This document shows, piece by piece, positions 5,923 to 32,053 of a stretch of 32,294 nt of DNA. The position numbers and the translations under genes are program-made. Positions within the stretch are counted from its first letter, which is position 1. The number at the start of each line of letters is the position of its first letter. Source of the DNA: Myxococcales bacterium (GTDB lineage: Bacteria; Myxococcota_A; UBA796; SXON01). Where the stretch lies: contig SHYV01000023.1 of NCBI GenBank assembly GCA_009692605.1, forward strand, positions 1 to 32,294, in the 5' to 3' direction. The notes beneath the pieces were generated by a model, which did no database searches, was not told the origin of the DNA, and saw nothing but the letters and a program-made list of their open reading frames with translations.

Positions 5923-7221
5923 TCAATCGGTCTTGGTGATCGGAGCGAAGGTCAGCCCGGCTTCACCCCAGGGGTAGAGCCGGTAGGAGTCGGTCTGGGC
6001 GCCGCCGGTCAAGGAGACGGCCCCGCTGAATGGCCCGACGTCAAAGAGCGCGTAGGACACGCTGGCGGCGGCCCCGCCGGCCATGATCTTGCCACTCAAA
6101 CGCTGGAAGCGGGCGTTTTCTTCCCCGAGGCCTGCGGAGGCTACGCAGGCGGCGTCAGTAGGGTTGGAGACGCAGAACCCGTCTGCGCCGGTGATCGATC
6201 CGCCGCCTACACCCCAGATCGGACCGGCAGCGGCCCAGAACTTCCCAACCCGAAGGCTGCCCGCGAGCCAACCGTATCCCAGGTGGATCGAGTTTCCCTG
6301 CACCGTGCTCCCATCGGGGTTGGTCACAGCCTCGCCGTCGATGCGCTCGGATCCGAACAGGTCGTGGTAGCCAACCTCGGCGAGCACGCCCAGGTTGTCT
6401 GTGAGGCCCACGTCCACTCCCACCCCGATCCGGGCGCCGACGCCGCCGAAGTGCGTGGCCTGCAGGCCTGCGTCCGCCGCCGTGCCATGGGTGTTCAGCT
6501 CGCCAGCGACCAGCGCCGATACCCCCACGCTCGCCCGCGGCCCCATCCAACCGAACTGGAACGCTCTCCCCTCCCCCTCCGCCGGAGTGATCGCGACGCT
6601 GCCGGTGTCCTTCCCAGCGGCCACCACGAATACGGTCGATCCGACGGTGTAATCCCCTGCCGGGAGCAATCCGTCGAAGTCCTGTTCGGACAGCACCGCT
6701 GTGTTCGCGATCGAGATCGATGCGCGCTGGTCGGGAGCGAACGGCGGCGCGGCCGGGATGATGGTGCGGTCCGCCCCGTAGCGGGCGTCATAGGCGACGG
6801 TCACGTGCCCGTAATTCGCGTCGATGGCGGCGAGTTGGGCCTGAAAGTCGGGATTTACCTCGATCTTGATCGCCTGCGACAGGCGGGACCTCGCCGCGGT
6901 GATGTCCCCGAGGTTCTGGGCGGCCTGGATGCCGAGGCCAAGCTCCGCTACCGTCAGGATCTCTCCGGCCGTCTGCAGGGCGATGAGCTTCTGGAATTGG
7001 GCCTCGACGGCGCTCCACGCGTTGCGCTGGGCCAATTTGCGCATCTCCTCCGACACCCTCACGTGCTCCGCCTTCTCGACCCCACCTGCCAAGGCCGACG
7101 GAGCGAACACCGAAGCCGCGACCCCGATGGCAGCGGCGCTAGCGGTCAGGCGTAGCAGCAGCCGCGCCTGCAGTCGGGTGTGGAAGAAAAAGCGCGGCGT
7201 CGGGGCGGGGCGTGGACTCAT
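5923..7221 (-). CDS. Secreted protein with helical N-terminus and outer-membrane-barrel-like C-terminus
   Basis: This 432-aa protein starts with a long basic signal peptide (multiple Arg, cleavage near SALAGG at about 46). A helical stretch (about 50-130) follows, resembling TPR-type packing. A PEGA-like beta-sandwich segment (about 140-215, ending LLPAGDYTVGSTVFVV) comes next. A glycine-rich beta-strand region from about 225 to the end has alternating hydrophobic residues, as in outer-membrane barrels. I do not recognise a named family. Start: ATG at 7221, overlapping the stop of the preceding ATPase gene (ATGA). It is followed directly by the PD40 gene. Position after an ABC importer suggests an envelope accessory role; that is inference. 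Confidence 0.75.
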   Translation of the reverse strand: MSPRPAPTPRFFFHTRLQARLLLRLTASAAAIGVAASVFAPSALAGGVEKAEHVRVSEEMRKLAQRNAWSAVEAQFQKLIALQTAGEILTVAELGLGIQAAQNLGDITAARSRLSQAIKIEVNPDFQAQLAAIDANYGHVTVAYDARYGADRTIIPAAPPFAPDQRASISIANTAVLSEQDFDGLLPAGDYTVGSTVFVVAAGKDTGSVAITPAEGEGRAFQFGWMGPRASVGVSALVAGELNTHGTAADAGLQATHFGGVGARIGVGVDVGLTDNLGVLAEVGYHDLFGSERIDGEAVTNPDGSTVQGNSIHLGYGWLAGSLRVGKFWAAAGPIWGVGGGSITGADGFCVSNPTDAACVASAGLGEENARFQRLSGKIMAGGAAASVSYALFDVGPFSGAVSLTGGAQTDSYRLYPWGEAGLTFAPITKTD

Positions 7222-8078
7222 GTGGCACCGGGGGCGGTGTTCGCAGGGGGCGAACTGGGGGGGGGCGAGCCGGGAGAGGACAAGGAGCGGCGCGAGTGAT
7301 CGGCGGAGTGATCCTGCCAGGGATCCAGCAGAGAGCGCGTGTACGGGTGGAGCGGCTTATCCTTGCGAGGGTCGAACGTCTCGATCACCCGTCCCTCCAG
7401 CATGACCACGACGCGGTGGCAGTATGGGAAGGCGGCGTCGAGGTCATGAGTGACCAGAATACACCCGGCGCGGTCTGGAAGGTTGCCAATCAAGTCCTCC
7501 AGCACAGAAGCCCGGCGCTCGGGATCAAGCCCCGAGGTAGGCTCATCCGCGACCACCAGCCGAGGCTCTAGTGCCAGCACGCGTGCCAACGTGACCCGGC
7601 GTTGTTCCCCGCCCGAGAGCTCCCGGGGGAGCGCGTGGTGGCGATGCGACAGCCCAAGCCGGGCCAGCATCGCGGAACCTCTGGCGTCCGCGTCCTCCTT
7701 TGGGACGCGGGCGAGGACCATGAGCGTCTCTTTCACATGCTCCAGGACGGTTTGCTGGGGGTCGAGCGCCGCCAGAGCGTCCTGTGGGATGTACTGGTAG
7801 CTGATGCGGTGAGCCTGTCGTTCCCGCTCGCCGAGATCGTCCCAGCGTTTGCCTTCGATCCAGATCTCGCCGGAGGTCGGCCTCTCTAGGCCGAGCACCA
7901 GCCGGGAGACCGTGGTCTTCCCCGAGCCCGACTGCCCCACCAACGCGACCACCTCGCCATCCTGCACCTCGATGTGGATGTCCCGCACGGCGTCCACCTC
8001 GCGGGACGGACTCCAGGGGTAGGCCCCGGGGATGCGAAAGGTCTTGCACAACCCGCGTATCGAGACGAGAGCGGTCAA
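7218..8078 (-). CDS. Oligopeptide/dipeptide-type ABC transporter ATPase (OppF/DppF-like)
   Basis: Cytoplasmic nucleotide-binding subunit of an Opp/Dpp-type importer, 286 aa. Walker A GQSGSGKTT is at 48-56, the Q-loop region at 96-100, signature LSGGEQRR at 154-161, Walker B with DEPTSGLD at 178-185, and the H-loop His at 211. The C-terminal LHPYTRSLL block is typical of OppF/DppF. The start is TTG at 8078, overlapping the stop of the partner ATPase (TTGA), with GGAGG 5 nt upstream, which supports this unusual codon. The C-terminal tail is Pro/Ser-rich and is encoded partly by a run of nine C on the minus strand (7257-7265). It pairs with the next ATPase as a heterodimer. Confidence 0.93.
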   Translation of the reverse strand: MTALVSIRGLCKTFRIPGAYPWSPSREVDAVRDIHIEVQDGEVVALVGQSGSGKTTVSRLVLGLERPTSGEIWIEGKRWDDLGERERQAHRISYQYIPQDALAALDPQQTVLEHVKETLMVLARVPKEDADARGSAMLARLGLSHRHHALPRELSGGEQRRVTLARVLALEPRLVVADEPTSGLDPERRASVLEDLIGNLPDRAGCILVTHDLDAAFPYCHRVVVMLEGRVIETFDPRKDKPLHPYTRSLLDPWQDHSADHSRRSLSSPGSPPPSSPPANTAPGAT

Positions 8079-8821
8079 GCTGCCCTCCCGTCGGTCCCGG
8101 AGGCGGGCATTAATCGGACTACGTAGTCCGCGATCCGGGTGACCGTGTCTTCGTGGTGCGAGATGAGTAGGATGCCGCAGCCATGGGCCTTTCCGACGGT
8201 GAGGAGCAGCTCGACGACCTGTCGACGAAACACAGGGTCCAGCCCGGTCTCAGGCTCGTCGGCCAGGAGCACTTGGGGATCTGACGCCATGGCGATCGCC
8301 AAGGCCGCCCGCTGACACATCCCCCCGGAGAGCTCGCTGGGCAGGGCGCCGGTCACATGCGGGGCCAGTCCAACCTCGTCGAGCAGCTCGATCACCACGG
8401 CAAACTCCCTTTCGGAGCTCACCGGCTCGGTGCGCCTGCGCATCGCGAGTTGCATCTGCCGCCCGACCGTGCGGCCCGGGTTCAGGGCGCTGGAGGCCGC
8501 CTGCGGGGAGTAAGAGAGGTACCCGCCGCGCATGAACGCGGTGTCGTTTGCCAGCCTGCTCATCCCCGACGGGCCGGTGTTTGCGTACCCCTTATACCAG
8601 TCGCGATCGGACTTGCCGGGGTACCGCAGGGTGCCGCCGAGCAACCCGGGCGCGACGTCCACGAGGCCCATGCAGGCCCGCGCGGTCACCGACTTCCCGG
8701 CGCCCGACGGGCCGCACAGCGCCGTGACCTTGCCAGCGTGCACCGATACCGACACCCCGTCGACGAGCTTTCGGGCGGGCCCACCGATCTGCAGTCCGGA
8801 GACCTCGAGGAGCAGGCTCAC
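8075..8821 (-). CDS. Oligopeptide/dipeptide-type ABC transporter ATPase (OppD/DppD-like)
   Basis: Second nucleotide-binding subunit, 248 aa. Walker A GPSGAGKS lies near residue 37, signature LSGGMCQRA, Walker B VLLADEPETGLD (Glu where most relatives have Thr after DEP), and His-switch LISHH. The reading frame could extend to 8962, but that region overlaps the permease gene and its translation is Arg/Pro-rich shadow. The GTG at 8821 overlaps the upstream stop (GTGA), has GAGGG upstream, and starts the protein at the expected beta-strand (LLLEVSGLQI). It lacks the long C-terminal OppD extension (RHPYT type), being shorter than usual. Confidence 0.93.
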   Translation of the reverse strand: MSLLLEVSGLQIGGPARKLVDGVSVSVHAGKVTALCGPSGAGKSVTARACMGLVDVAPGLLGGTLRYPGKSDRDWYKGYANTGPSGMSRLANDTAFMRGGYLSYSPQAASSALNPGRTVGRQMQLAMRRRTEPVSSEREFAVVIELLDEVGLAPHVTGALPSELSGGMCQRAALAIAMASDPQVLLADEPETGLDPVFRRQVVELLLTVGKAHGCGILLISHHEDTVTRIADYVVRLMPASGTDGRAA

Positions 8822-9639
8822 CGCGCCCTCGCGCTGAAGCTGCCAAGCCGAGCGAAGAGGACCACGGAGCCGACGAGGAACAGCCCCGCGGCGAGGGCGT
8901 GGCCGGTGCCCACTCCAGGGATCACCAAGGCTGGGTAGCCGAGCTTCAGCATGTCCGCCCAAGACCGGAGGTCGTCGGGGTGGGTGAAGCTCGACTGGTT
9001 CTGCTGCAATGACAGGTAGGACAACGCGAGCTCAAGGAACGTGACCTGAGTCATCGTCTCGCACGCCTGCCGAACGATCACCGGCCGCAAGTTCAGCGCC
9101 ACGATGTGGTACAGAAAAATCCGGTTCCACGAGAAGCCGTGCGCCCTCAATGCCTCCACGAACCGGGCCCCGCCCAGCCGCTCGGCCACTGCTGCGGCCT
9201 CGTCCATCGCCCCCGGACTGCAGAGCACGGCCCACGCGAGCGCGAGCGGCACCAAGCTCCGGTCGGTGGACGGGATCAAGATCGCGGCCACCAGAATGAC
9301 GACCATCCTCGGCAAGGCACCGACTACCTCGCCGAACGCCGCCACAGCGGCGTCCACCCGGCTGTCGCCTACGCAGCGCAGGAGTCCGCCAGCGACGCTC
9401 ATCGCCGCCACCAGACAGCCGGCGAGTGCGGCCGGCACGACCACCACGCGCGCACCCTGCGCCGCATACTCCAACAACGGGCGCCCGCGGCTGTCCGTCC
9501 CAAACGGGGGGAACGCGTCCCAGGACTTCAGTCCCCGCTCCAATACCGGCTCGGAGAGGTGCTGAGGCGCGAGCCAGCCCATCGAAGCGAGCGCACCGAA
9601 GATCGCCAGCGCCAGTAACGCAGGTAACCAGCGGCTCAT
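8818..9639 (-). CDS. Opp/Dpp-type ABC transporter permease (OppC/DppC-like)
   Basis: Inner-membrane permease, 273 aa, of the binding-protein-dependent transport family. An N-terminal membrane segment (about 5-24) is followed by a periplasmic stretch with FGTDSRGRPLLEYAAQGAR, the hallmark of DppC/OppC just before the transport core. Further hydrophobic segments lie near 64-85, 104-123, 126-145 and 235-262. The EAA-loop that contacts the ATPases reads EALRAHGFSWNRIFLYHI. Start: ATG at 9639, overlapping the stop of the other permease (ATGA). The conserved order of binding protein, two permeases and two ATPases makes the assignment firm. The transported substrate is not determined by sequence. 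Confidence 0.9.
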   Translation of the reverse strand: MSRWLPALLALAIFGALASMGWLAPQHLSEPVLERGLKSWDAFPPFGTDSRGRPLLEYAAQGARVVVVPAALAGCLVAAMSVAGGLLRCVGDSRVDAAVAAFGEVVGALPRMVVILVAAILIPSTDRSLVPLALAWAVLCSPGAMDEAAAVAERLGGARFVEALRAHGFSWNRIFLYHIVALNLRPVIVRQACETMTQVTFLELALSYLSLQQNQSSFTHPDDLRSWADMLKLGYPALVIPGVGTGHALAAGLFLVGSVVLFARLGSFSARAR

Positions 9640-21981: not shown

Positions 21982-23043
21982 TCAGCCCCCGGTGTCGACC
22001 GAGGTCTCCAGATTTCCCGCGAACGTATAGTCCACGGCGATGGTCGCCCCGCGCGGGGGGACCGCGGCGCCATGGAAGACGATGTGGGCGTAGGACTGAT
22101 CTGCTGCCTCGACGTAGGTCCATCCGTCGACCTCTCCAGGCGTCTGGCTGGCCACCACATCGTTCCCATCGATGTCACCTACCCACACCTCGATGCTGTC
22201 GGGCTCGGCAAGGTAGCCGAGGGTGAAGGTGTCGAGGACGCCGGCGGCGATCAAGCCGAGGGAATCCATGATTCCGCTGTAGTCTGCATCGCAGATGTTG
22301 GCCCGGACGCCGCCGATCATCTCGATGATCGTCGCGTACCGCTTGCCCGGCACAGCGTCCGCGCAGCCGTCCACGGCGTCGGGGCCGATGATGCCGGAGA
22401 AGGTGAACGTGCCCTCCGAGCCCTTTTTGACCTCCTTCAACTGGGAGACCAGATCGGGGATGGGCGTCAGCTTGTCATAGTCGGTGTAGCAGCTCTCGCC
22501 GTTGGATCCTGAGCCGAGCGCGCCATCGTCCGAACAGTCGTTCTCGTCGCTCACCACCACGATCGCGAGGCTGGCCTCGCTGCGCAGAAAACCCACGTTG
22601 GTCGTGGTGGAGCGGGGCGGGATCAGGGCCTTGTAGGCGGCCTCGATGCCCTTCTCCTGATCGTCGCCGCCGGTGCCGACCTGCACCTGCGCCGCAAATT
22701 CCGCTTGGTAGCCGGGGGTGGCGCCGGTGACGTACGGACCGACCAGCGCCGCAGCGTTCAGGTTGCTGGGGTCGAGGTCGCTCGTGATGACGCCGATATG
22801 GAAATCCATGCCGGTCGTCTCAAGGTGGCCGATGAACGCAGCCGCCCCGTTCGCGACGGCGGTCTGCTCCTGCACCATCGAGACGGAATTGTCGAGCACC
22901 CAGAGGATGTCGACCTCGTTCGAAGGGGCTTGCTGGAAGGTCTCGGTCTTGTGGATGGCCTTGACGTTGTTCTCATTGCACGCCAGAAGCAGGACGAGCG
23001 CGGGGGCAGCGAGGAGGGCCGGGGTGCGGGCGAGGGTGCGCAA
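21982..23043 (-). CDS. VWA-domain lipoprotein
   Basis: A 353-aa lipoprotein with basic N-terminus, hydrophobic core and lipobox Leu-Leu-Ala-Cys (Cys22). A von Willebrand factor A domain follows with the metal-ion-dependent adhesion motif DNSVS (Asp51, Ser53, Ser55) after NEVDILWVL, and a later LAIVVVSDENDCSDDG block. This VWA lipoprotein type is frequent in Myxococcota. The C-terminal part (about 280 on) is a beta-rich domain ending VDTGG. The role is probably metal-dependent protein binding at the envelope; the ligand is unknown. The start is TTG at 23043 with AAGGA 6 nt upstream, which gives a proper signal peptide. An upstream start at 23121 would bury the signal behind 26 residues. Confidence 0.85.
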   Translation of the reverse strand: MRTLARTPALLAAPALVLLLACNENNVKAIHKTETFQQAPSNEVDILWVLDNSVSMVQEQTAVANGAAAFIGHLETTGMDFHIGVITSDLDPSNLNAAALVGPYVTGATPGYQAEFAAQVQVGTGGDDQEKGIEAAYKALIPPRSTTTNVGFLRSEASLAIVVVSDENDCSDDGALGSGSNGESCYTDYDKLTPIPDLVSQLKEVKKGSEGTFTFSGIIGPDAVDGCADAVPGKRYATIIEMIGGVRANICDADYSGIMDSLGLIAAGVLDTFTLGYLAEPDSIEVWVGDIDGNDVVASQTPGEVDGWTYVEAADQSYAHIVFHGAAVPPRGATIAVDYTFAGNLETSVDTGG

Positions 23044-23152
23044 GTGGGTTCCTTTGGGGCCAGACGGCGTGGTGCCGCAGCAGCGTGCTTGAACGTACCG
23101 GCAAACCACTGTGCTTGGCAAGGGGGAACTGCGCTCGCACCCACAACGCCCG
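23044..23152. other. Gap between kinase and VWA lipoprotein genes
   Basis: 109 bp on the minus-strand run. It holds the AAGGA ribosome-binding site for the VWA gene near its 3' end. I see no strong hairpin with T tract, so the kinase and VWA genes may be co-transcribed or the latter may have its own promoter here. Confidence 0.35.
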
Positions 23153-24979: not shown

Positions 24980-25477
24980 ATGAAGAAAAACGTGGATCGT
25001 GAGTCCGCCGAATTGGAGCGGGCCTACCCTGGCCTCCTCGCTCGTCTGGGGACCGAATCGCTGGACCGGCTCGCGCGGGAGTACCAGCTGCCCAAGAGCC
25101 TGCTCGTCTACTCCCGCGACCGCGTCCGCCAGCTCGAAGCTACGCCGCCGGGCGGGCGCAAGGGGGCCAGCGATGCGATCACGCGACAAACCGCCCCCGA
25201 GCGCGTTGTAGCCGTCGTCCTCCCCCCGTCGGCGGTGGTCGTCAAGGACACCGCCCTGCAGATCGGGCTGGAGCAGGCCTATCCGGGCATCACCCAGTCC
25301 CTGTCGCGGCGTGACGACGTGGAGGTCGCGATCCAGTTCGGCATTTCGCTGCCGGCCATCGCCCGGATCCGGGAGCTGCTCGGCGTCGAGCGGGTGGAGG
25401 TTTCATCGCCCGTCGCACACCCCAAAGCGGCGCCTGCGCGGGCGCTGCCGGCCCGGCTCGTCGCGTCTCGGGACTGA
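24980..25477 (+). CDS. Small helical protein with two internal repeats, function unknown
   Basis: A 165-aa protein without signal peptide or membrane segment, so probably cytoplasmic. Two related blocks of about 40 residues can be aligned: LERAYPGLLARLG followed by LAREYQLPKSLLVYSRDRV, and LEQAYPGITQSLSRRDDV followed by AIQFGISLPAIARIRELL. Each starts with the pattern Leu-Glu-x-Ala-Tyr-Pro-Gly and is predicted as a helix bundle with helix-turn-helix-like spacing. The tail is Ala/Pro-rich. No family recognised; DNA or protein binding is possible. Start: ATG at 24980 with a weak GGTGG/TGGA site. It lies 54 bp before the ABC transporter operon and may be its first gene. Confidence 0.75.
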   Translation: MKKNVDRESAELERAYPGLLARLGTESLDRLAREYQLPKSLLVYSRDRVRQLEATPPGGRKGASDAITRQTAPERVVAVVLPPSAVVVKDTALQIGLEQAYPGITQSLSRRDDVEVAIQFGISLPAIARIRELLGVERVEVSSPVAHPKAAPARALPARLVASRD

Positions 25478-25531: not shown

Positions 25532-26308
25532 ATGGCCGTCATCGTCGCATTGAAGAACGTCGTCAAGGACTACCCGCTGGGCGCAACCACGGTGCGGGCC
25601 CTCCGCAAGGTGGATCTTGAGATTGACGAAGGCGAGTTTACCGTGATCGCCGGCCCCTCCGGCTCGGGCAAGTCCACGCTCCTCAACTTGATTGGCTGCA
25701 TCGACGTGGCGACGTCCGGCGAGGTCAACGTCGCGGGGGAGAACACGGCCACGCTGAACGACAACCAGCTCACTCAGCTCCGCCTGCGGAAGATCGGGTT
25801 CATCTTCCAGAGCTTCAACCTGATCGCGGTCCTCGACGTGTTCCAGAACATCGAGTTTCCCCTCTTGCTTCAGGGCCGGCTGACCACCGCCGACCGCGAA
25901 GCGCGCGTAATGGACGTCATTGAAAAGGTAGGCCTGCGACCGCAGCTCCACCAGCGCCCGAGCGAGCTCTCCGGCGGCCAGCGTCAGCGCGTCGCGATCG
26001 CCCGCGCGTTGGTCACGCGCCCGAAGCTCGTCCTCGCCGACGAGCCGACCGCCAACCTCGACTCCGTGACCGGGGGCAGCATCATCACGCTGATGCGCGA
26101 CCTCAATCGAGCCGACCACACCACGTTCATCTTCTCGACCCACGACCAGCGCGTCATGGAGCAGGCTGACCGCGTCGTGAACATCCACGACGGGGTGGTG
26201 AGCGCGCAAGGCCTCGGCGCGCTCGACCCGCTGCCGGGCTCCGACGGTGTGGGCGGCGGCGACCTCCGGGCGACGATGGGCGGTGCGATCAAGGGAATTC
26301 CCGGATGA
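25532..26308 (+). CDS. LolD/MacB-type ABC transporter ATPase
   Basis: Cytoplasmic ATPase, 258 aa, of the type VII (MacB/LolCDE) ABC family. Walker A GPSGSGKST is at 41-49, the Q-loop Gln93 lies in IFQSFNL, signature LSGGQRQR is at 146-153, and Walker B LVLADEPTANLD at 166-177. The His switch is in FSTHDQRV. The C-terminus carries about 35 extra residues rich in Gly/Asp that are not part of the core fold. Start: ATG at 25532 with AGGAG 7-8 nt upstream. It overlaps the first permease gene by ATGA. Such ATPases power mechanotransmission and do not move substrate through the membrane; in LolCDE they extract lipoproteins from the inner membrane. Confidence 0.94.
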   Translation: MAVIVALKNVVKDYPLGATTVRALRKVDLEIDEGEFTVIAGPSGSGKSTLLNLIGCIDVATSGEVNVAGENTATLNDNQLTQLRLRKIGFIFQSFNLIAVLDVFQNIEFPLLLQGRLTTADREARVMDVIEKVGLRPQLHQRPSELSGGQRQRVAIARALVTRPKLVLADEPTANLDSVTGGSIITLMRDLNRADHTTFIFSTHDQRVMEQADRVVNIHDGVVSAQGLGALDPLPGSDGVGGGDLRATMGGAIKGIPG

Positions 26309-28413
26309 GCAAGGTGTTGGTGCTGGCCGGGATCGCCTGGCGTAATGTACTCGCACACCGGGTGAAGAGCGCGATCGTCGGCTCCCTGCTGGCGTTCGGC
26401 TCTTTTCTTGTGGTCACCGGCAAGACGATAGTCGACAGCATCGAAGCGGCGATGGCCGAGTCGATCACCGCGTCGCTTGCGGGCGACATTCAAGTGTACG
26501 ACAAGAACGCAAAGGACCAGCTGGCCCTGTTCAGCTTCGGCGCTGGCGGCGAAGACATCGGTGAGATCACCGATTTTCCGAAGCTGCGGGATGCGCTCAC
26601 GGCGTTGCCGCAGGTGAAGGCGGTCGTACCGCTCGGCAGCGTGAACACCGTCGTCTTTGGCAGGACCGAGCTTGACGATACGCTGGACAAGCTGCGGGCG
26701 GCGAACCGGGCTGGGCTCTTAGAGGAGCGCGACCAGCTGTTTGCCCAAGTGCTCGCCATCTCGGCCCAGCTGCAGCAGGATCAAAAAGCCGCCTTCACCA
26801 TCGCGGCCGACAAGGTGCAGGCTCAGATCGACCTCGACGGCCTCACTCGGGTCCAGACCGTCGAGTTCGCGAGCCAGTTCACTTCCGATCCAGAGGGCAC
26901 GCTCGACTGGATTGACCGGGCCATCGCGCCGCTCGCGAGCGACGGCAAGATGATGTACCTGCGGCTGCTCGGCACCGACATGCCGGCTTTCTCCAAGGAC
27001 TTCAGTCGATTCCGAATCGTCGACGGCCAGAACATCCCCGAAGGCAAACGTGGCTTCCTGATCGCGAAATACGCCTACGAGCGCTTCGTGAAGAACAAGG
27101 TGGCGCGCGAACTCGACAACATGAAGGAGAAGCGGGACGACGACGGGCTCACGTTCGCTACGGACAAGGCCCTTCACGACCAGGCCGGCCGGTGCGCGAG
27201 GCAGTACGCCCGGATCTTGTTCATGCTCTCGCCTAAGGACGCAGCGGAGCTGAAGCCGCTGCTTCAGGCCGAGCTTGGGGTCTCGCCGGCCTCCGCTGCG
27301 CCCGACGATCAGAACCTTGGCAAGCTGCTGGTGTCCTTCCTGTCGGTGGACGACACCAACTTCGATGCGCGCTACGTCTGGTTCTACACCCACATCGCCC
27401 CCCGCGTCCGGCTCTACGACGTCGGCATCGGCGAGATGATGAGCCTCCGGGCGTACACCAAGACCGGGTACATGCGCAGCGTCAATGTGAAGGTCTGGGG
27501 CACCTTCGAGTTCGTGGGATTGGAGAGCTCGCAGCTCGCTGGGGTGTACAATCTGGCCGACCTCGTCACGTTCAGGCAGCTCTACGGCAAGATGACCGAG
27601 AGTCAGGTCGCCGAGCTGGACGGCGTCCGCAAGGCGGCGGCCGTGAAGGAGGTGACGCGGGAGAGCGCGGAGGACGACCTGTTCGGTGGCGGTGCAGACG
27701 CGCTGGTGACCGAGTCGACGACCACGCGCGCGTTCGACGAATTCGCGGGTGTAGACATGACAGCGGCCTCCCGGGCAGCCGCCGACCTCGATGATCGCGT
27801 ATACACCACGGCGGACATGGAGAACGGCGTCGTTCTGAACGCGGCGGTGATCCTGCACGAAGGCGCGTCGATCCCCGAGGCACAGCGGGCGATCGAGGCC
27901 GCTTCACTCGCGGCGGGCGCTCCGGTGAACGCGCTCGACTGGCAGACGGCGTCCGGGATCGTGGGCCAGCTGCTGCTGGTGATCAAGGGTGTGCTGCTGG
28001 TGGCCATCCTCGTCATCTTCCTGGTCGCGCTGTTCATCATCAACAACTCGATGATGATGGCCACGCTGGAGCGGACCGCGGAGATCGGCACGATGCGGGC
28101 TATCGGTGCGCAACGCCGGGAAGTGCTCGCACTTGTGCTGTTGGAGACGCTCGTGCTCGCCACGGTAGCCAGCGGCCTCGGGGCGATGGTGAGCGTCGGC
28201 ATGCTGGCGTGGCTCGGGGAAGTGGGCATTCGCGCCCCGTCGGCCCAGATGACGTTCATCTTCGGCGGCCCCCGGCTCTACCCGGCCTGGTCGATGCTGA
28301 ACGTCTCGCTGGGTGTCGGTTCGGTGAGCATCATCAGCCTGTTCTCGACCTTCTACCCCGCGATGATGGCCGCGAGCGTGCAGCCAGTCGTCGCGATGAA
28401 CCCCAAAGAGTAG
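26305..28413 (+). CDS. FtsX-like ABC permease with very large periplasmic domain (702 aa)
   Basis: Inner-membrane permease of the LolC/LolE/MacB group. Membrane helices lie near 20-42, 555-580, 607-632 and 663-686. The conserved FtsX block ERTAEIGTMRAIGAQRREVL follows the second helix. The periplasmic part spans about 510 residues, far more than the roughly 220 of typical LolC/E. It contains a helical insertion rich in Gln/Asp/Leu (about 112-165) after an MacB-PCD-like start (AGDIQVYDKNAKDQL). The extra mass could bind a dedicated cargo or the LolA-like carrier. Start: ATG at 26305 in the ATPase stop. The next gene begins 3 bp after its stop. Long minus-strand ORFs opposite this gene are shadows. 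Confidence 0.9.
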   Translation: MSKVLVLAGIAWRNVLAHRVKSAIVGSLLAFGSFLVVTGKTIVDSIEAAMAESITASLAGDIQVYDKNAKDQLALFSFGAGGEDIGEITDFPKLRDALTALPQVKAVVPLGSVNTVVFGRTELDDTLDKLRAANRAGLLEERDQLFAQVLAISAQLQQDQKAAFTIAADKVQAQIDLDGLTRVQTVEFASQFTSDPEGTLDWIDRAIAPLASDGKMMYLRLLGTDMPAFSKDFSRFRIVDGQNIPEGKRGFLIAKYAYERFVKNKVARELDNMKEKRDDDGLTFATDKALHDQAGRCARQYARILFMLSPKDAAELKPLLQAELGVSPASAAPDDQNLGKLLVSFLSVDDTNFDARYVWFYTHIAPRVRLYDVGIGEMMSLRAYTKTGYMRSVNVKVWGTFEFVGLESSQLAGVYNLADLVTFRQLYGKMTESQVAELDGVRKAAAVKEVTRESAEDDLFGGGADALVTESTTTRAFDEFAGVDMTAASRAAADLDDRVYTTADMENGVVLNAAVILHEGASIPEAQRAIEAASLAAGAPVNALDWQTASGIVGQLLLVIKGVLLVAILVIFLVALFIINNSMMMATLERTAEIGTMRAIGAQRREVLALVLLETLVLATVASGLGAMVSVGMLAWLGEVGIRAPSAQMTFIFGGPRLYPAWSMLNVSLGVGSVSIISLFSTFYPAMMAASVQPVVAMNPKE

Positions 28414-28416
28414 GCC

Positions 28417-29763
28417 ATGATCGGTGTATTGTTCCAGATCGCGATGCGGAACCTCGTTCAGGCACGTCGTCGAACGGGCGTACTTTTCCTCGCCGTGGGA
28501 ACGGTCACCGGGATGTTGGTGCTGCTTCAGGCGATGAGCCAGGGCATCAACGACAACATGGAGACGGCCGCCACCACGCTCTCGGCCGGGCAGATCAACG
28601 TCGCCGGCTTCTACAAGGTGACCCCCGGGTCGGCCGCACCCATCGTGACGAACGCCGCAGAGGTCCGGAAGATCGTCGAGGAGAACACCCCGAACCTGGA
28701 CTACACGCTCCTCCGCCATCGCTCCTGGGGCAAGGCGGTCAGCGAGACGGGCACGGTGCAGACGGCGCTGTCCGGCATCATCCCCGCCGAGGAGGAGCAG
28801 TTCTTCAAGAAGCTGCAGCTGGCGAAGGAGAAGGACTACGTGGAGGGGGGAAGCAGCGAGGTCATCGGAGACCCGCGCCAACTTTCGGAGCCGCACACGG
28901 TCGTGTTCTTTGCGAACCAGGCGAAGCGCCTGGGCGTGCAGGTAGGCGACGTGGTCACCTTCAAGACCGAGACGCAGGTTGGTCGGGCGAACACGCTGGA
29001 CCTCAAGGTGGTCGCGGTCGCGAAGGACCTTGGGCTGTTGTCGAGCTTCTCCTGCTTCACCCAGCGAGAGACCGTGCTGGAGCTCGGCCAGCTTGACCCC
29101 GACACCACCGGCGCTGTCTGGGTGTACCTCAAGGACATCGATGAGGCGCCAGTGACCATGGCGCACCTCCGGGAGGTCTTCACGGCCAAGGGCTACCGGC
29201 TGATGGACTACAACCCGAACCCGTTCTTCTTCAAGTTCGAGGATGTGCAGGGAGAGGACTGGACCGGCCAGAAGCTCGACCTGACGCTTTGGAAGGACGA
29301 GGTCAGCTTCTTGTCGTGGGTGATCATCGCGTTCAACTCGGTGACGTGGTTTCTGACGACCATCCTCGTGGCGATCATCACCATCGGGATCATGAACGCG
29401 ATGTGGCAGTCGGTCCGGGAGCGCACGCGCGAGATTGGGACCATGCGCGCCGTCGGGCTGGGTCGGCTGCAGACCCTGATCCTGTTCATGGCCGAGGCGG
29501 TCATGCTTGGTCTGGCCAGCAGCGTCGCTGGAGCCGCCGTGGGGGGCGGCGTTGCGGTGGCCGTGGACGCCGCGAACATCCACGTGCCGATGGAAGCGAT
29601 GGCGAGCATCCTGCTCTCCGACAACATCCACCTCTCGGTGAAGCCGATGAGCGTGGTGGCGGCGGTAGGCTTCCTCACCGGCTTCACCGGGTTGTCCGCC
29701 CTGTGGCCATCGGTCAGGGCGGCCCTCCTTCAGCCGGTCAAGGCTCTCTCCCATGTGGAATAA
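28417..29763 (+). CDS. FtsX-like ABC permease (448 aa)
   Basis: Second, different FtsX-type permease, close to LolC/LolE in length. Membrane helices lie near 20-40, 302-330, 353-383 and 412-432. The FtsX block reads ERTREIGTMRAVGLGRLQTL. The MacB-like periplasmic core lies between, with an opening LSAGQINVAGFYKV. Pairing with the 702-aa permease suggests a heterodimer as in LolCE, with unequal periplasmic halves. Start: ATG at 28417, 3 bp after the previous stop, consistent with translational coupling. The 616-aa minus-strand frame opposite has a His/Arg/Asp-rich composition typical of antisense shadows. Confidence 0.91.
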   Translation: MIGVLFQIAMRNLVQARRRTGVLFLAVGTVTGMLVLLQAMSQGINDNMETAATTLSAGQINVAGFYKVTPGSAAPIVTNAAEVRKIVEENTPNLDYTLLRHRSWGKAVSETGTVQTALSGIIPAEEEQFFKKLQLAKEKDYVEGGSSEVIGDPRQLSEPHTVVFFANQAKRLGVQVGDVVTFKTETQVGRANTLDLKVVAVAKDLGLLSSFSCFTQRETVLELGQLDPDTTGAVWVYLKDIDEAPVTMAHLREVFTAKGYRLMDYNPNPFFFKFEDVQGEDWTGQKLDLTLWKDEVSFLSWVIIAFNSVTWFLTTILVAIITIGIMNAMWQSVRERTREIGTMRAVGLGRLQTLILFMAEAVMLGLASSVAGAAVGGGVAVAVDAANIHVPMEAMASILLSDNIHLSVKPMSVVAAVGFLTGFTGLSALWPSVRAALLQPVKALSHVE

Positions 29764-29772
29764 GGTGGCGAC

Positions 29773-30600
29773 GTGACCCCCAACGAATTCAAGATCTTCC
29801 GCGCAAAGCTACGTACATTCTCACTTGGTGCGCTGACCGCGATGGCGCTTGGCCTCGCCACGGTGACCCCGACGCCCGCCCTTGCAGCGCCGAGCACCGA
29901 CGAGCTGGTGCAGATGCTCCGAGTCGTCGACGACCGACAGGAGAACAACGGCGACTTCAAGTCTCTGGTCTATCTGGAGCAGAAGGAGTCTGGAAAAGCA
30001 GACCTCGTCTACCAGGTCGCGGTCTACCGGCGCGACCTCGACGACAAGCTTGTCATGCTGTTCCTGATGCCGAAGGAGCAGGCCGGCCAGGGGTACCTGC
30101 GCGTGGACAACAACCTGTTCTTCTACGACCCGTCGGTTGGGAAGTGGGAGCGGCGGACGGAGCGCGAGCGCATCGGCGGCACCGATTCGAACCGGCAAGA
30201 CTTCGATCAGTCGCGCCTGCACGAGGAGTACCGGCCAACCTTCGTCGCCGAAGAAAAGCTCGGCTCATACACCGTGAACCACCTGCTGCTGACCGCGACC
30301 ACCGAGGCCGATGTCGCCTACCCTGTCGTTCACCTGTGGGTGGACAAGGCGACAGGCAACGTGCTCAAACGTCAGGATCTGGCGCTGTCCGGGAAGCTGA
30401 TGCGCACGTCGCTGTACCCAAAATGGGAGAAGGTCTACAGCCAGACGAAGCAGGCCGATGTCTACTATGCGCGTGAGATCCGCATCTTCGACGAGATCGA
30501 GAAGGGAAACCAGACCACCATCGTGATCCAGAGCCTGGACCTCTCCGCGCTGGACGACAGCATCTTCACGAAGGCGTGGCTGGAGAGCAAGTCGCGATGA
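29773..30600 (+). CDS. LolA-like periplasmic carrier (outer-membrane lipoprotein-sorting protein family)
   Basis: A 275-aa exported protein: basic N-region, hydrophobic core and cleavage near TPALA (about 38). The mature part is an incomplete beta-barrel-like sequence with family blocks DFKSLVYLEQKESGKADLVYQVAVYRR, LVMLFLMPKEQAGQGYLRVDNNLFFYDP (positions about 60-125) and VVHLWVDKATGNVLKRQ. These match the COG2834 outer-membrane lipoprotein-sorting group, which shares the LolA fold and shields lipid or acyl chains in the periplasm. There is no lipobox, so it should be soluble. The start is GTG at 29773, 9 bp after the permease stop, with AAGGTGG upstream. Co-location with a LolD/FtsX exporter supports a carrier function. 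Confidence 0.87.
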   Translation: MTPNEFKIFRAKLRTFSLGALTAMALGLATVTPTPALAAPSTDELVQMLRVVDDRQENNGDFKSLVYLEQKESGKADLVYQVAVYRRDLDDKLVMLFLMPKEQAGQGYLRVDNNLFFYDPSVGKWERRTERERIGGTDSNRQDFDQSRLHEEYRPTFVAEEKLGSYTVNHLLLTATTEADVAYPVVHLWVDKATGNVLKRQDLALSGKLMRTSLYPKWEKVYSQTKQADVYYAREIRIFDEIEKGNQTTIVIQSLDLSALDDSIFTKAWLESKSR

Positions 30601-30646
30601 AGGCTGACTTTCGATGGCCGCACCCCCATGAGCCCTGGATGGCCGC

Positions 30647-32053
30647 GTGATCTGGCTCCTCCTGCTCTCCGCCATCGCCAACGCGGAGGATAGCCCTGTC
30701 CCCCCCGAGGCCCCCCTCCCCCCCGAGGCCCCCCCCCCGTCCTCCTCAGCCATCGACGAGGGCGCGCTCTTCGGCGGGTCCCCGGACACCGACCCCGCCG
30801 CGTCGCTCATCGGCGGCCCGTTCACCTCGGACTCGACGATCCTGAGCCGACTCGGGGCCACGACCGACCGGTTCGCCATTGGTGGCAAGCTGTACATGCG
30901 GCTCGACGCCACGCAGGACACGGACTGGCACCTGCCCTCGACCACCCTCGCCTCCCCGGACGCGGTATACCTGTACGTGGATGGCAGGCCGAACGACCGA
31001 CTACGGGCGTTTGTACAGGGTAAGCTCACCCACGACTTCACCTTGACGGAGGGCGCTACCGACGCCTACGGCCAGCCGATCAACGTCAGCAGCGTGAGCC
31101 TCGACCAACTTTGGCTGAAATTCGATGTGGGCCGCAGGGTGTTCCTGACCCTTGGAGACCAGAAGCTCAAGTGGGGCTCGGGCCGGTTCTGGAACCCCAC
31201 CGACTTCCTGAACCAGCAGGTGCTGGACCCACTCGCGGCCTACGATCTGCGGCCGGGAGTGCCTCTGCTCAAGGTCCACATCCCGGTCCAGGCGCTCGGC
31301 GCGAACCTCTACGCGATCGCCAACCTCGATCAGGCCAGCGCTGTGGACAGGATCGGCGGCGCCGTCCGCGCCGAGTGGGCGGGAGGCAGCACCGAATTTG
31401 CGGTTTCCGGCGCTGCCCGGAAGGACCAGCCTGTACGGCTTGGCGCGGATCTGTCGACCGCCATCTGGCTCGTCGATCTGCACGTGGAGGGCGCGGTCCG
31501 GCACGGCGAACCCGCCGACTTCTGGGAGGGCGGACTTGACATCGAGACGCTCGATTTCCCCACCGCGTACTCACGCGAGCGCGAGTGGATCCCGCAGGTG
31601 ACCGCCGGAGCGCAGATCGGGTTCAATTATTCCACGGAGGACGCCGTCTATCTGGGCGGGGAGTATTTCTACAACGGATCGGGCTACTCGGAGCCGTCCA
31701 TCTACCCGTGGTTGCTGCTCACCGGGCAATATCAGCCGTTCTACCTTGGCGAGCACTACGCCGCAGCCTACATCTTCCTGCCCGAGCCCGGCCGGATCGA
31801 GGACCAGAGCTACACCGCCAGCGCGCTGACGAACCTGTCCGACGGCTCGGTGCTCACCCGAGTGGACTGGTCGCTGACCGTCCTGACCCAACTCTCCCTG
31901 AACGTTTACGCGCAGTACCACTTCGGAGACGTGGGAGAGTTCAACTTCTCGCTCGACATCCCGGCGGTCCCGGGCGTCGAGGGACTTGAAGAGGGGTACT
32001 CGATCACGCCGCCGACCCTGGATCTCGGGGCTGGCCTTACCGTCGCCTTCTGA
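30647..32053 (+). CDS. Outer-membrane beta-barrel protein of the Lol-like operon
   Basis: A 468-aa protein with short signal peptide (MIWLLLLSAIANA) and a Pro-rich N-terminal linker encoded by C tracts. Many amphipathic strands run to a C-terminal Phe (LTVAF), as expected for a BAM substrate. Blocks such as VFLTLGDQKLKWGSGRFWNPTDFLN and YDLRPGVPLLKVHIPV (about 165-210) recall porin-like barrels in which a W-G-x-G strand contacts the conserved NPTD turn. I give no family name. The start is GTG at 30647 with GGATGG upstream; the in-frame ATG at 30614 runs into a stop. The gene closes the operon and is the natural outer-membrane receiver for the LolA-like carrier. Confidence 0.82.
   Translation: MIWLLLLSAIANAEDSPVPPEAPLPPEAPPPSSSAIDEGALFGGSPDTDPAASLIGGPFTSDSTILSRLGATTDRFAIGGKLYMRLDATQDTDWHLPSTTLASPDAVYLYVDGRPNDRLRAFVQGKLTHDFTLTEGATDAYGQPINVSSVSLDQLWLKFDVGRRVFLTLGDQKLKWGSGRFWNPTDFLNQQVLDPLAAYDLRPGVPLLKVHIPVQALGANLYAIANLDQASAVDRIGGAVRAEWAGGSTEFAVSGAARKDQPVRLGADLSTAIWLVDLHVEGAVRHGEPADFWEGGLDIETLDFPTAYSREREWIPQVTAGAQIGFNYSTEDAVYLGGEYFYNGSGYSEPSIYPWLLLTGQYQPFYLGEHYAAAYIFLPEPGRIEDQSYTASALTNLSDGSVLTRVDWSLTVLTQLSLNVYAQYHFGDVGEFNFSLDIPAVPGVEGLEEGYSITPPTLDLGAGLTVAF
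30700..30738 (+). repeat. C7-GAGG-C6TC7-GAGG-C10 tract inside barrel gene
   Basis: Homopolymer C runs of 7 (30700-30706), 7 (30718-30724) and 10 (30729-30738) are separated by GAGG. They encode the Pro-rich linker just after the signal peptide. Runs of eight or more C are prone to slipped-strand changes that would shift the frame. Confidence 0.9.

What the first reader, a model, noticed from the sequence alone, without database searches (positions are those of the whole stretch)
25532..32053. Self-contained Lol-like export route: LolD ATPase, two FtsX permeases, LolA-like carrier and an outer-membrane barrel in one operon
Seen directly: five adjacent co-oriented genes with ATGA overlap or gaps of 3, 9 and 46 bp. 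Known: LolCDE releases lipoproteins to LolA, and LolB inserts them in the outer membrane in beta/gamma-proteobacteria; other groups lack LolB. Inferred: here an integral beta-barrel takes the receiver place, so the operon would form a full inner-to-outer-membrane route for a lipoprotein, lipid or pigment, possibly to the cell surface. The barrel is not a known LolB or LptD type, as far as I can see.
Basis: partly seen in the sequence, partly recalled or inferred. Interest (0 to 1): 0.72.

Follow-up and report, generated by a model that had tools for sequence, protein, structure and literature searches.

The report
ATP-powered carrier-and-barrel export operon
Five genes found together again and again in two bacterial phyla look like one machine that pulls an oily molecule out of the inner membrane, carries it across the cell envelope and hands it to a dedicated outer-membrane barrel; the cell's ordinary lipoprotein transport genes lie elsewhere, and the cargo is unknown.

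Summary
In detail: five co-directed genes (25532-32053) encode a LolD-like ATPase, 702-aa and 448-aa FtsX permeases, a PF17131 LolA-like carrier and a predicted outer-membrane barrel. The barrel lies within 600 bp behind the carrier in 38 of 47 fetched loci of the phylum; of nine misses, four have under 250 bp of contig left, three 1.1-1.4 kb, two 8.9 kb. The genome has a separate lolC/E-lolD pair and LolA, and a second, rearranged cassette.

The interpretation needs correcting. The carrier is PF17131, not LolA proper. The barrel is probably a distant DUF1302 relative (profile-profile 92-98%; reversed control 1%). DUF1302 barrels with LolA-fold partners serve RND-driven hydrophobe systems such as AmeABCD (PMC6394551). 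I read the cassette as their ATP-driven counterpart: a trans-envelope exporter of a lipid or other hydrophobic molecule. A lipoprotein cargo is possible, less likely. Substrate, direction and contacts are inferred. Nine paper searches (listings capped) showed no description of this cassette; closest is Borrelia BBJ23-29, with an Omp85 barrel.

The parts
25532..26308 (+). A: LolD-like ABC ATPase (258 aa)
   Evidence: ABC_tran 113.9 bits; best NCBIfam TIGR02982 DevA 229 and TIGR02211 LolD 226.4 bits, both below their cut-offs; Walker A, LSGGQ, Walker B, H-loop motifs
26305..28413 (+). B: 702-aa FtsX-type permease with an enlarged, helix-rich periplasmic part (about residues 60-550)
   Evidence: FtsX 55.2 bits; AlphaFold2 pLDDT 77.6; Foldseek best hit LolE of LolCDE, E 6.4e-12
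28417..29763 (+). C: 448-aa FtsX-type permease
   Evidence: FtsX 58.7 bits and weak MacB_PCD 22.1, below its cut-off; profile matches YtrF, LolF, LolC, LolE in the PDB
29773..30600 (+). D: soluble periplasmic LolA-like carrier, PF17131 (275 aa)
   Evidence: PF17131 121.6 bits; signal-like N-terminus, no Cys; profile matches 3buu, 9tp6, 3bk5, 4z48
30647..32053 (+). E: outer-membrane barrel, probable distant DUF1302 relative (468 aa)
   Evidence: AlphaFold2 barrel; Foldseek MOMP/AlgE/OprD-type hits; hhalign to DUF1302 92.4% and 97.7%; signal-like N-terminus and C-terminal Phe

Best explanation
The operon encodes one ATP-powered route across the cell envelope for a hydrophobic, lipid-like molecule. 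A drives a B/C permease pair, a Type VII (LolCDE-like) ABC transporter that lifts the molecule out of the inner membrane by mechanotransmission. The soluble LolA-fold protein D receives it in a hydrophobic groove, crosses the periplasm and docks on barrel E, which takes it into or through the outer membrane. It is the ATP-driven counterpart of the RND-driven DUF1302/DUF1329 systems such as AmeABCD. Shown here: gene set, order, conservation, families, models of B and E, and separation from the housekeeping Lol genes. Inferred: stoichiometry, complex formation, direction, D's groove, the D-E hand-over, and the hydrophobic non-protein cargo.
For: Families and folds. Order B-C-D-E in 36 of 36 fetched phylum loci in which all four were found (one, L094, prints as C-B-D-E because its C frame runs stop to stop over B). 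E within 600 bp behind D in 38 of 47. In a second phylum, 9 of 9 fetched loci have D next to E and 7 show all five genes in the same order. The same five parts occur in three other gene orders (14 loci, 13 of them chosen because D and E hits already lay near each other). Separate lolC/E-lolD and LolA in this genome; a better lolC/E match away from the cassette in 5 of 5 named genomes asked. Barrel probably related to DUF1302. A carrier scoring on both PF17131 (196 bits) and DUF1329 (36.9 bits) lies beside a DUF1302 barrel in the same phylum, and an MMPL/RND-type frame beside another. Precedents: AmeABCD (PMC6394551), PP_0765/PP_0766 (PMC10866462), YbbAP-TesA (PMC12646458). Beyond A-E no neighbouring ORF cluster spans more than 14 of the 59 loci compared, so no dedicated cargo gene is evident (ORFs under 100 aa not seen).
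Against: No substrate, mutant or interaction data exist, and complexes could not be folded here. Two of 47 loci keep D without E in about 8.9 kb behind it (L081, L098), and three more show no partial E in 1.1-1.4 kb (L068, L070, L101). L104 has D and E but no A, B or C in the ~4.5 kb beyond D, and L099 no A in the ~4.1 kb beyond B. Strong D places occur in only 47 of 188 genomes of the phylum (counted), E in 11 of 144 of the second phylum. The barrel model has moderate confidence and low TM-scores to porins (0.35-0.49 by query length). DUF1302 homology rests on profile-profile comparison: 0 of 16 members hit DUF1302 in Pfam, and searches of this genome with DUF1302 and DUF1329 gave 0 matches. 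One of 18 carriers matches LolB weakly (E 0.0032), and B's nearest fold is a lipoprotein transporter, so a lipoprotein cargo stays open. D-E distance correlation over 45 loci is moderate (0.54) and confounded by species history.
Confidence: 0.6

Rival explanations
1. Dedicated lipoprotein route: the cassette extracts a subset of lipoproteins, D carries them, and E inserts them or takes them to the cell surface.
For: B's best fold match is LolE of LolCDE with bound lipoprotein; A is LolD-like; one of 18 carriers matches LolB weakly; [quoted passage not shown]
Against: Carrier is PF17131; PF03548 is not among the families matched by D or by the 18 carriers scanned. The solved relative LolA3-PG binds LolB only very weakly (PMC13103446). 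No cargo gene is evident beside the cassettes (ORFs under 100 aa not seen). The barrel resembles porin/DUF1302 types, the latter linked to hydrophobic molecules (PMC6394551).
Confidence: 0.18
2. Delivery of a lipid to the outer membrane only: E is a docking site that lets D unload its lipid into the inner leaflet, without export to the outside.
For: LolA carries acyl chains (PMC12846838, passages); the second cassette of this genome lies near KAS III, weak AMP-binding and LpxD-type genes.
Against: A barrel kept as a usual fifth part suggests more than docking; those lipid genes belong to the other cassette.
Confidence: 0.14
3. Inward or retrograde route: the barrel takes up a hydrophobic compound and the carrier hands it to the inner membrane.
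For: PP_0765/PP_0766 (DUF1302/DUF1329) are needed for growth on Tween20 (PMC10866462).
Against: LolCDE, and by proposal YbbAP, extract from the inner membrane towards the periplasm (PMC12846838, PMC12646458).
Confidence: 0.07
4. It is simply the housekeeping lolCDE-lolA set of this organism.
For: Lol-like family matches of A, B and C and the name of D's family.
Against: A synthetase-lolC/E-lolD row on contig C149 (TIGR02212 224 bits against 48 for B; cut-off 362 reached by none) and PF03548 LolA on C186.
Confidence: 0.01

Closest known systems
AmeABCD of Castellaniella defragrans (RND HAE3 AmeD, DUF1329 AmeB, AmeC, DUF1302 barrel AmeA; PMC6394551, passages and section 11 read)
   Same: Outer-membrane DUF1302-type protein plus LolA-superfamily periplasmic protein plus inner-membrane pump in one conserved cassette; the paper names 3BUU, 3BK5 and 4Z48 as that superfamily, and D's profile matches those same entries.
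   Different: Energy comes from an ATPase with two FtsX permeases instead of an RND pump; no fourth periplasmic gene like AmeC among the five; carrier is PF17131, with DUF1329 only weakly matched by 2 of 18 relatives.
Borrelia BBJ23-29 (PMC13078400, passages read)
   Same: MacB/Lol-like Type VII ABC transporter, LolA-like carrier and an outer-membrane barrel in one cluster; proposed to move a non-polar ligand outwards.
   Different: Barrel is Omp85 (BamA/TamA-like), one permease proposed as homodimer, two TPR proteins; here two unlike permeases, porin/DUF1302-type barrel, no TPR match in the five.
LolCDE-LolA-LolB (E. coli; PMC12846838, passages read)
   Same: ATPase plus two FtsX permeases plus LolA-fold carrier; B's best structural match is LolE, LolC also high.
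   Different: Scores far below lolCE/LolD equivalog cut-offs; carrier from another family; barrel instead of LolB; separate lol genes exist in the genome.
P. putida PP_0765/PP_0766 with PP_2018/PP_2019 (PMC10866462, passages read)
   Same: DUF1302 barrel predicted to bind its DUF1329 partner; needed on Tween20.
   Different: The other partners are described as a periplasmic protein and a multidrug efflux transporter, not a LolCDE-type ABC.
YbbAP-TesA (PMC12646458, passages read)
   Different: Partner is a hydrolase; the passages name no carrier or barrel.

Membership tests
Canonical Lol system (LolCDE-LolA-LolB) | Permeases and ATPase above the LolCE / LolD equivalog cut-offs | tested here: not met
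   B 50.5 and C 39.4 bits against 362.45 (TIGR02212); A 226.4 against 307.75 (TIGR02211). The genome's own C149 lolC/E also stays below 362, so the cut-off alone does not decide
Canonical Lol system (LolCDE-LolA-LolB) | Carrier belongs to PF03548 LolA | tested here: not met
   D matches PF17131, no PF03548 up to E 1; 18 of 18 carriers match PF17131, and PF03548 is not among the 8 families listed
Canonical Lol system (LolCDE-LolA-LolB) | Permease fold as in LolC/LolE | tested here: met
   Foldseek of B: LolE E 6.4e-12, MacB 7.5e-11, LolC 1.8e-9; C not folded
Canonical Lol system (LolCDE-LolA-LolB) | LolB receptor, an outer-membrane lipoprotein | tested here: not met
   Fifth gene encodes a predicted barrel without cysteine; LolB elsewhere in the genome not searched
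Canonical Lol system (LolCDE-LolA-LolB) | Cargo is lipoproteins | not testable with these tools
   No substrate data
Type VII (MacB/LolCDE) ABC transporters | MacB-type ATPase plus FtsX-core permeases with four TM helices and a periplasmic domain | tested here: met
   C shows four hydrophobic segments; B shows three strongly hydrophobic regions and a fourth long helix at 664-691 in its model
AmeABCD-type DUF1302/DUF1329/RND systems | DUF1302 outer-membrane barrel | tested here: inconclusive
   0 of 16 members hit DUF1302 in Pfam; profile-profile 92.4% and 97.7%, reversed control 1.2%, unrelated profile 0.03%; one barrel place of this kind (G004) scores 22.6 bits, 23.2 with neighbours, at the 23.2 cut-off; the window's genome scores none
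AmeABCD-type DUF1302/DUF1329/RND systems | LolA-superfamily periplasmic carrier | tested here: met
   PF17131 121.6 bits and PDB relatives 3buu, 3bk5, 4z48; DUF1329 itself only weak, 2 of 18 members, best E 0.0058
AmeABCD-type DUF1302/DUF1329/RND systems | RND (HAE3/MMPL) pump | tested here: not met
   Pump position holds ATPase and two FtsX permeases
Borrelia BBJ23-29-type cluster | Omp85-family barrel and two TPR proteins | tested here: not met
   No Omp85 or TPR match in the five proteins; E's 50 listed fold matches are porin- and AlgE-type (one a designed metalloprotein), none named BamA or TamA
MacAB-TolC | MacA adaptor and TolC duct | tested here: not met
   Neither among the family matches of the five proteins

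The most novel reading that the evidence does not exclude
A distinct class of trans-envelope transport system, common in a Myxococcota-like phylum and present in a second: an ATP-driven LolCDE-type extractor with an oversized permease loads a soluble LolA-fold shuttle that delivers a lipid to a dedicated porin-type barrel for display or release at the cell surface, with neither a LolB, a periplasmic bridge, nor an adaptor-duct in the operon.
Probability: 0.4. Interest if true: 0.72.

Novelty: new variant of a known kind. Interest (0 to 1): 0.58.

Why it matters
From general knowledge, hydrophobic molecules are known to reach the outer membrane mainly by a bridge (LPS), a LolA shuttle (lipoproteins) or ducts (drugs). 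A shuttle that ends on its own barrel and is fed by an ATP-driven extractor would be a further solution, with interchangeable engines: RND in AmeABCD-type systems, ABC here. It also cautions against reading PF17131 proteins and their FtsX neighbours as lipoprotein-sorting genes. Named Anaeromyxobacter strains carry the cassette, and the one whose genome I asked (L021, A. soli SG29) has a better lolC/E match elsewhere, so a test in culture looks possible.

Tried and rejected
Housekeeping Lol set: rejected. LptD/LolB/Omp85 barrel: no such Pfam match for E or its 15 relatives and none among the 50 listed fold hits. Chance grouping: rejected by conservation. Dedicated cargo gene: among 59 loci (47 plus 12 of the second kind), the widest neighbour cluster covers 14 loci, both strands (one member is a Ser/Thr kinase by Pfam); the others printed cover 4-7. 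Of those I identified DNA polymerase III delta (5), metallo-beta-lactamase (5), a MarR regulator (4) and an AMP-binding/LuxE-like gene (4) from one member each, and a KAS III gene (4) from its member in this genome; two 5-locus clusters and several 4-locus ones were not identified, some look like antisense frames, and ORFs under 100 aa were not seen. Upstream ORF 24980-25477 has clear homologues only in loci of close relatives, at variable distance from A, and no Pfam hit; not counted as a part. The downstream ORF from 32069 has a neighbour-position homologue only in L013; in L015/L060 a weaker match lies about 3 kb on, reversed. PDB sequence relatives of E: none to E 1. IMG/VR scan with E: nothing. 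Mirror-tree distances (45 loci): moderate and confounded, not used. Not done: complex prediction, folds of C or D, a search for LolB, any test of a LolC-type hook or LolA arginine.

Limits: the phylum searches drew 188 genomes and the match lists are cut. The genome is 79% complete. That the cassette is not in print rests only on searches of an open-licence library; some searches listed 20 of 27, 148 and 140 papers.
Full report
Observation. The window ends with five genes on the + strand at 25532-26308 (A), 26305-28413 (B), 28417-29763 (C), 29773-30600 (D) and 30647-32053 (E). A is an ABC ATPase (113.9 bits), B and C carry the FtsX domain (55.2, 58.7 bits), D is PF17131 LolA_like (121.6 bits), and E matches nothing in Pfam or NCBIfam up to E 1. 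A has Walker A, signature, Walker B and H-loop motifs. D has a signal-like N-terminus and no cysteine; E has a short signal-like N-terminus and ends in phenylalanine (read by eye, no signal predictor was run).

Folds. The AlphaFold2 model of E (16-sequence alignment, mean pLDDT 72.5, pTM 0.70) is a barrel in which I count 18 main strands, leaving out four of 3-4 residues, behind ~73 low-confidence residues. Foldseek's listed PDB matches are porin-type and AlgE-type outer-membrane barrels (Campylobacter MOMP first, E 3.4e-11, probability 1.00), with TM-scores of 0.35-0.49 by query length. The model of B (13 sequences, mean pLDDT 77.6) has long helices at 19-59, 552-589, 604-640 and 664-691, three of them in strongly hydrophobic regions, and a periplasmic part of about 490 residues; C has about 255 by hydropathy. 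B's best PDB match is LolE (6.4e-12), then MacB (7.5e-11) and LolC (1.8e-9). At sequence level only its last 135-175 residues match LolF, LolE, LolC, YtrF or MacB. The extra helix-rich segment of B is present in all 13 aligned sequences, window included, with gaps of 17-25% in two 20-residue blocks and few elsewhere. The second cassette of this genome has permeases of only 408 and 427 aa. The segment has no assigned function.

Conservation. A scan of genome contigs with D found 16 relatives. Eleven show A-B-C-D-E in order; the other five (L015, L016, L017, L019, L024) are cut by contig ends and show the part that fits. Identities to the window's proteins run from 31% (E of L020) to 88% (A of L013). 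The 16 include Anaeromyxobacter species and records titled Myxococcales bacterium and Bacteriovorax stolpii. The window's own phylum is unnamed; one genome drawn from it has a contig of the same length and the same profile scores as the record titled Myxococcales bacterium GY13CH_bin.24 (L026 and L073), so I infer Myxococcota. In 188 genomes of that phylum the D profile matched 108 at E <= 1e-10, the E profile 99 at E <= 1e-5 and the B profile 91 at E <= 1e-20.

From I count 48 D places of at least 300 bits in 47 of the 188 genomes, the window's included. I fetched the other 47 places. E lies within 600 bp behind D, same strand, in 38. Of nine misses, four have under 250 bp of contig left (L061, L074, L091, L102), three have 1.1-1.4 kb and show no partial E (L068, L070, L101), and two have about 8.9 kb without E (L081, L098); each of those last two genomes has a strong E match on another contig. 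In 36 of the 47 all of B, C, D and E were found, always in that order on one strand; one (L094) prints as C-B-D-E only because its C frame was taken stop to stop. Of the 36, 31 also show A; four are cut near B (L059, L082, L084, L096) and one, L099, shows no A in the ~4.1 kb beyond B (my count). In L093 the A gene stands off by about 1.5 kb. L104 has D and E but no A, B or C in the ~4.5 kb beyond D.

In the phylum of the Bacteriovorax-titled genome (G189; Bdellovibrionota if the title is right), 11 of 144 genomes match E at E <= 1e-8, one of them weakly (34.7 bits). G189 itself is L020. I fetched 9 of the other 10, leaving out the weak one: 9 of 9 have D beside E, 7 have all five in order, and 2 are cut by contig ends.

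A second cassette. The window's genome has another set on contig C180 in the order E-A-C-C-D, with two short permeases. Its D is 27% identical to the window's. In 14 loci of this second kind (C180 plus 13 that I chose because D and E hits already lay on one contig, so not an unbiased count), all five parts are present in three orders: E-A-C-C-D (10), D-C-C-A-E (3), C-C-D-E-A (1) (in L114 and L115 E scores only 33 and 32 bits). Recurrence of the same parts in different orders argues that they work together.

Not the housekeeping set. On C149 the genome has a class-II (D/K/N) aminoacyl-tRNA synthetase (PF00152 292.9 bits; presumably lysS), a lolC/E gene and a LolD-like gene 35% identical to A, in a row. 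That lolC/E scores 224 bits on TIGR02212, against 48 for B and 38 for C (none reaches the 362-bit cut-off). It also has a PF03548 LolA (95.9 bits) on C186 and a weaker match (37 bits) on C168. I asked the genomes of 5 of the 16 named loci (L018, L020, L021, L026, L027): 5 of 5 have a lolC/E match of 141-328 bits which by contig number or position lies away from the cassette, none over the cut-off. I did not search for LolB.

What E and D are related to. No member of the E alignment hits DUF1302 in Pfam (0 of 16; two weak Porin_O_P hits, best E 0.001, one DUF1833 at 0.29), and the window's genome has no DUF1302 or DUF1329 match at E <= 0.001. Profile-profile comparison of E (14 sequences) with seven DUF1302 proteins of the same phylum, all above Pfam's cut-off, gives 92.4% over 133 columns with the tool, and 97.7% with E 9.2e-12 over 408 columns in my own hhalign run with other settings. 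My run gave 1.2% against the reversed DUF1302 alignment and 0.03% against the D alignment. The shared core is a G-x-Q-x-x-x-W-G motif, whose G, Q, W and G are invariant in both alignments. Two controls are thin calibration, so I call this probable distant homology. D is PF17131; DUF1329 matches only 2 of 18 members weakly, and LolB 1 of 18 (E 0.0032). One carrier in the same phylum scores 196 bits on PF17131 and 36.9 on DUF1329 and sits beside a DUF1302 barrel (L125). Another DUF1302 barrel (L118) has DUF1329 on one side and, divergently, an MMPL/RND-type frame (26 bits) on the other.

Literature. AmeABCD of Castellaniella defragrans is a cassette of DUF1302 outer-membrane protein, LolA-superfamily DUF1329 protein, AmeC and an RND pump; its deletion lowers monoterpene tolerance (PMC6394551, passages and section 11). 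In P. putida, PP_0765 (DUF1302) and PP_0766 (DUF1329) are needed on Tween20 and are predicted to bind each other, with PP_2018 and PP_2019 as further partners of PP_0766 (PMC10866462, passages). LolA3 of P. gingivalis (9TP6), which D's profile matches, has a hydrophobic groove, binds LolB only very weakly and was judged to have a separate function (PMC13103446, passages). [quoted passage not shown]). Type VII ABC transporters typically work on the periplasmic side rather than moving substrates through the membrane (PMC12646458, passages), and LolCDE hands acyl chains to LolA (PMC12846838, passages). Operons of two ABC ATP-binding proteins, an MMPL transporter and an 'outer membrane lipoprotein-sorting protein' are strongly iron-regulated in oral Bacteroidetes (PMC10434189, passages). 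The passages I saw of a Lol review (PMC11784454) described no such system. Searches showed no description of this ABC/PF17131/barrel cassette; three of them listed only the first 20 of more papers.

Mechanism proposed. ATP binding and hydrolysis in A drives B/C to lift a hydrophobic molecule out of the inner membrane; D takes it in its groove; D docks on E, which moves it into or through the outer membrane. The parts and their linkage are shown; contacts, direction and cargo are inferred. Cargo hints are indirect: the RND counterparts serve monoterpenes and a Tween20-linked process; the second cassette lies on a contig with KAS III, weak AMP-binding and LpxD-type genes and a weak MarR hit; and a MarR-type gene lies just upstream of A in four loci of the window's kind (L061, L067, L071, L083, clustered by BLAST; only L067 was checked against Pfam). 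I saw no regulator match beside the window's cassette (the ORF just upstream has no Pfam hit).

Verdict. New variant of a known kind; in about a quarter of the sampled genomes of its phylum (47 of 188, by the carrier alone); function untested.

Noticed in passing
Own genome contig C180 (L030:1311-7498; L147): A second, rearranged cassette (barrel-ATPase-permease-permease-carrier) with a weak MarR hit before it, a class-III aminotransferase on the opposite strand behind it, and KAS III, weak AMP-binding and LpxD-type genes further on.
   Followed up: partly
L061, L067, L071, L083: A MarR-type regulator gene just upstream of the ATPase gene in four cassettes of the window's kind (one member checked with Pfam).
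   Followed up: partly
window 26305-28413: Permease B carries about 235 more periplasmic residues than permease C, mostly helical in the model and present in all 13 aligned sequences; the genome's second cassette lacks it. Role unknown.
   Followed up: partly
L104 (G077:C143): Carrier and barrel together without ATPase or permeases in the ~4.5 kb beyond the carrier.
   Followed up: no
L116 and other distant D/E pairs: Further carrier-barrel cassettes with other gene orders exist in the same phylum; they were not surveyed.
   Followed up: no
L118 (G050:C82): DUF1302 barrel with DUF1329 on one side and a divergent MMPL/RND-type frame on the other: the RND-driven counterpart exists in the same phylum.
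   Followed up: partly
window 7218-8962, -: Two adjacent genes on the minus strand both encode ABC ATPases (114.7 and 71.7 bits), a separate transporter system.
   Followed up: no
window 21982-23121, -: Reads like a lipoprotein signal followed by a von Willebrand A-type DNSVS stretch (read by eye, not searched).
   Followed up: no
Own genome C168:11988-12449, -: A second, weak PF03548 LolA match (37 bits) in a longer frame; not identified.
   Followed up: no
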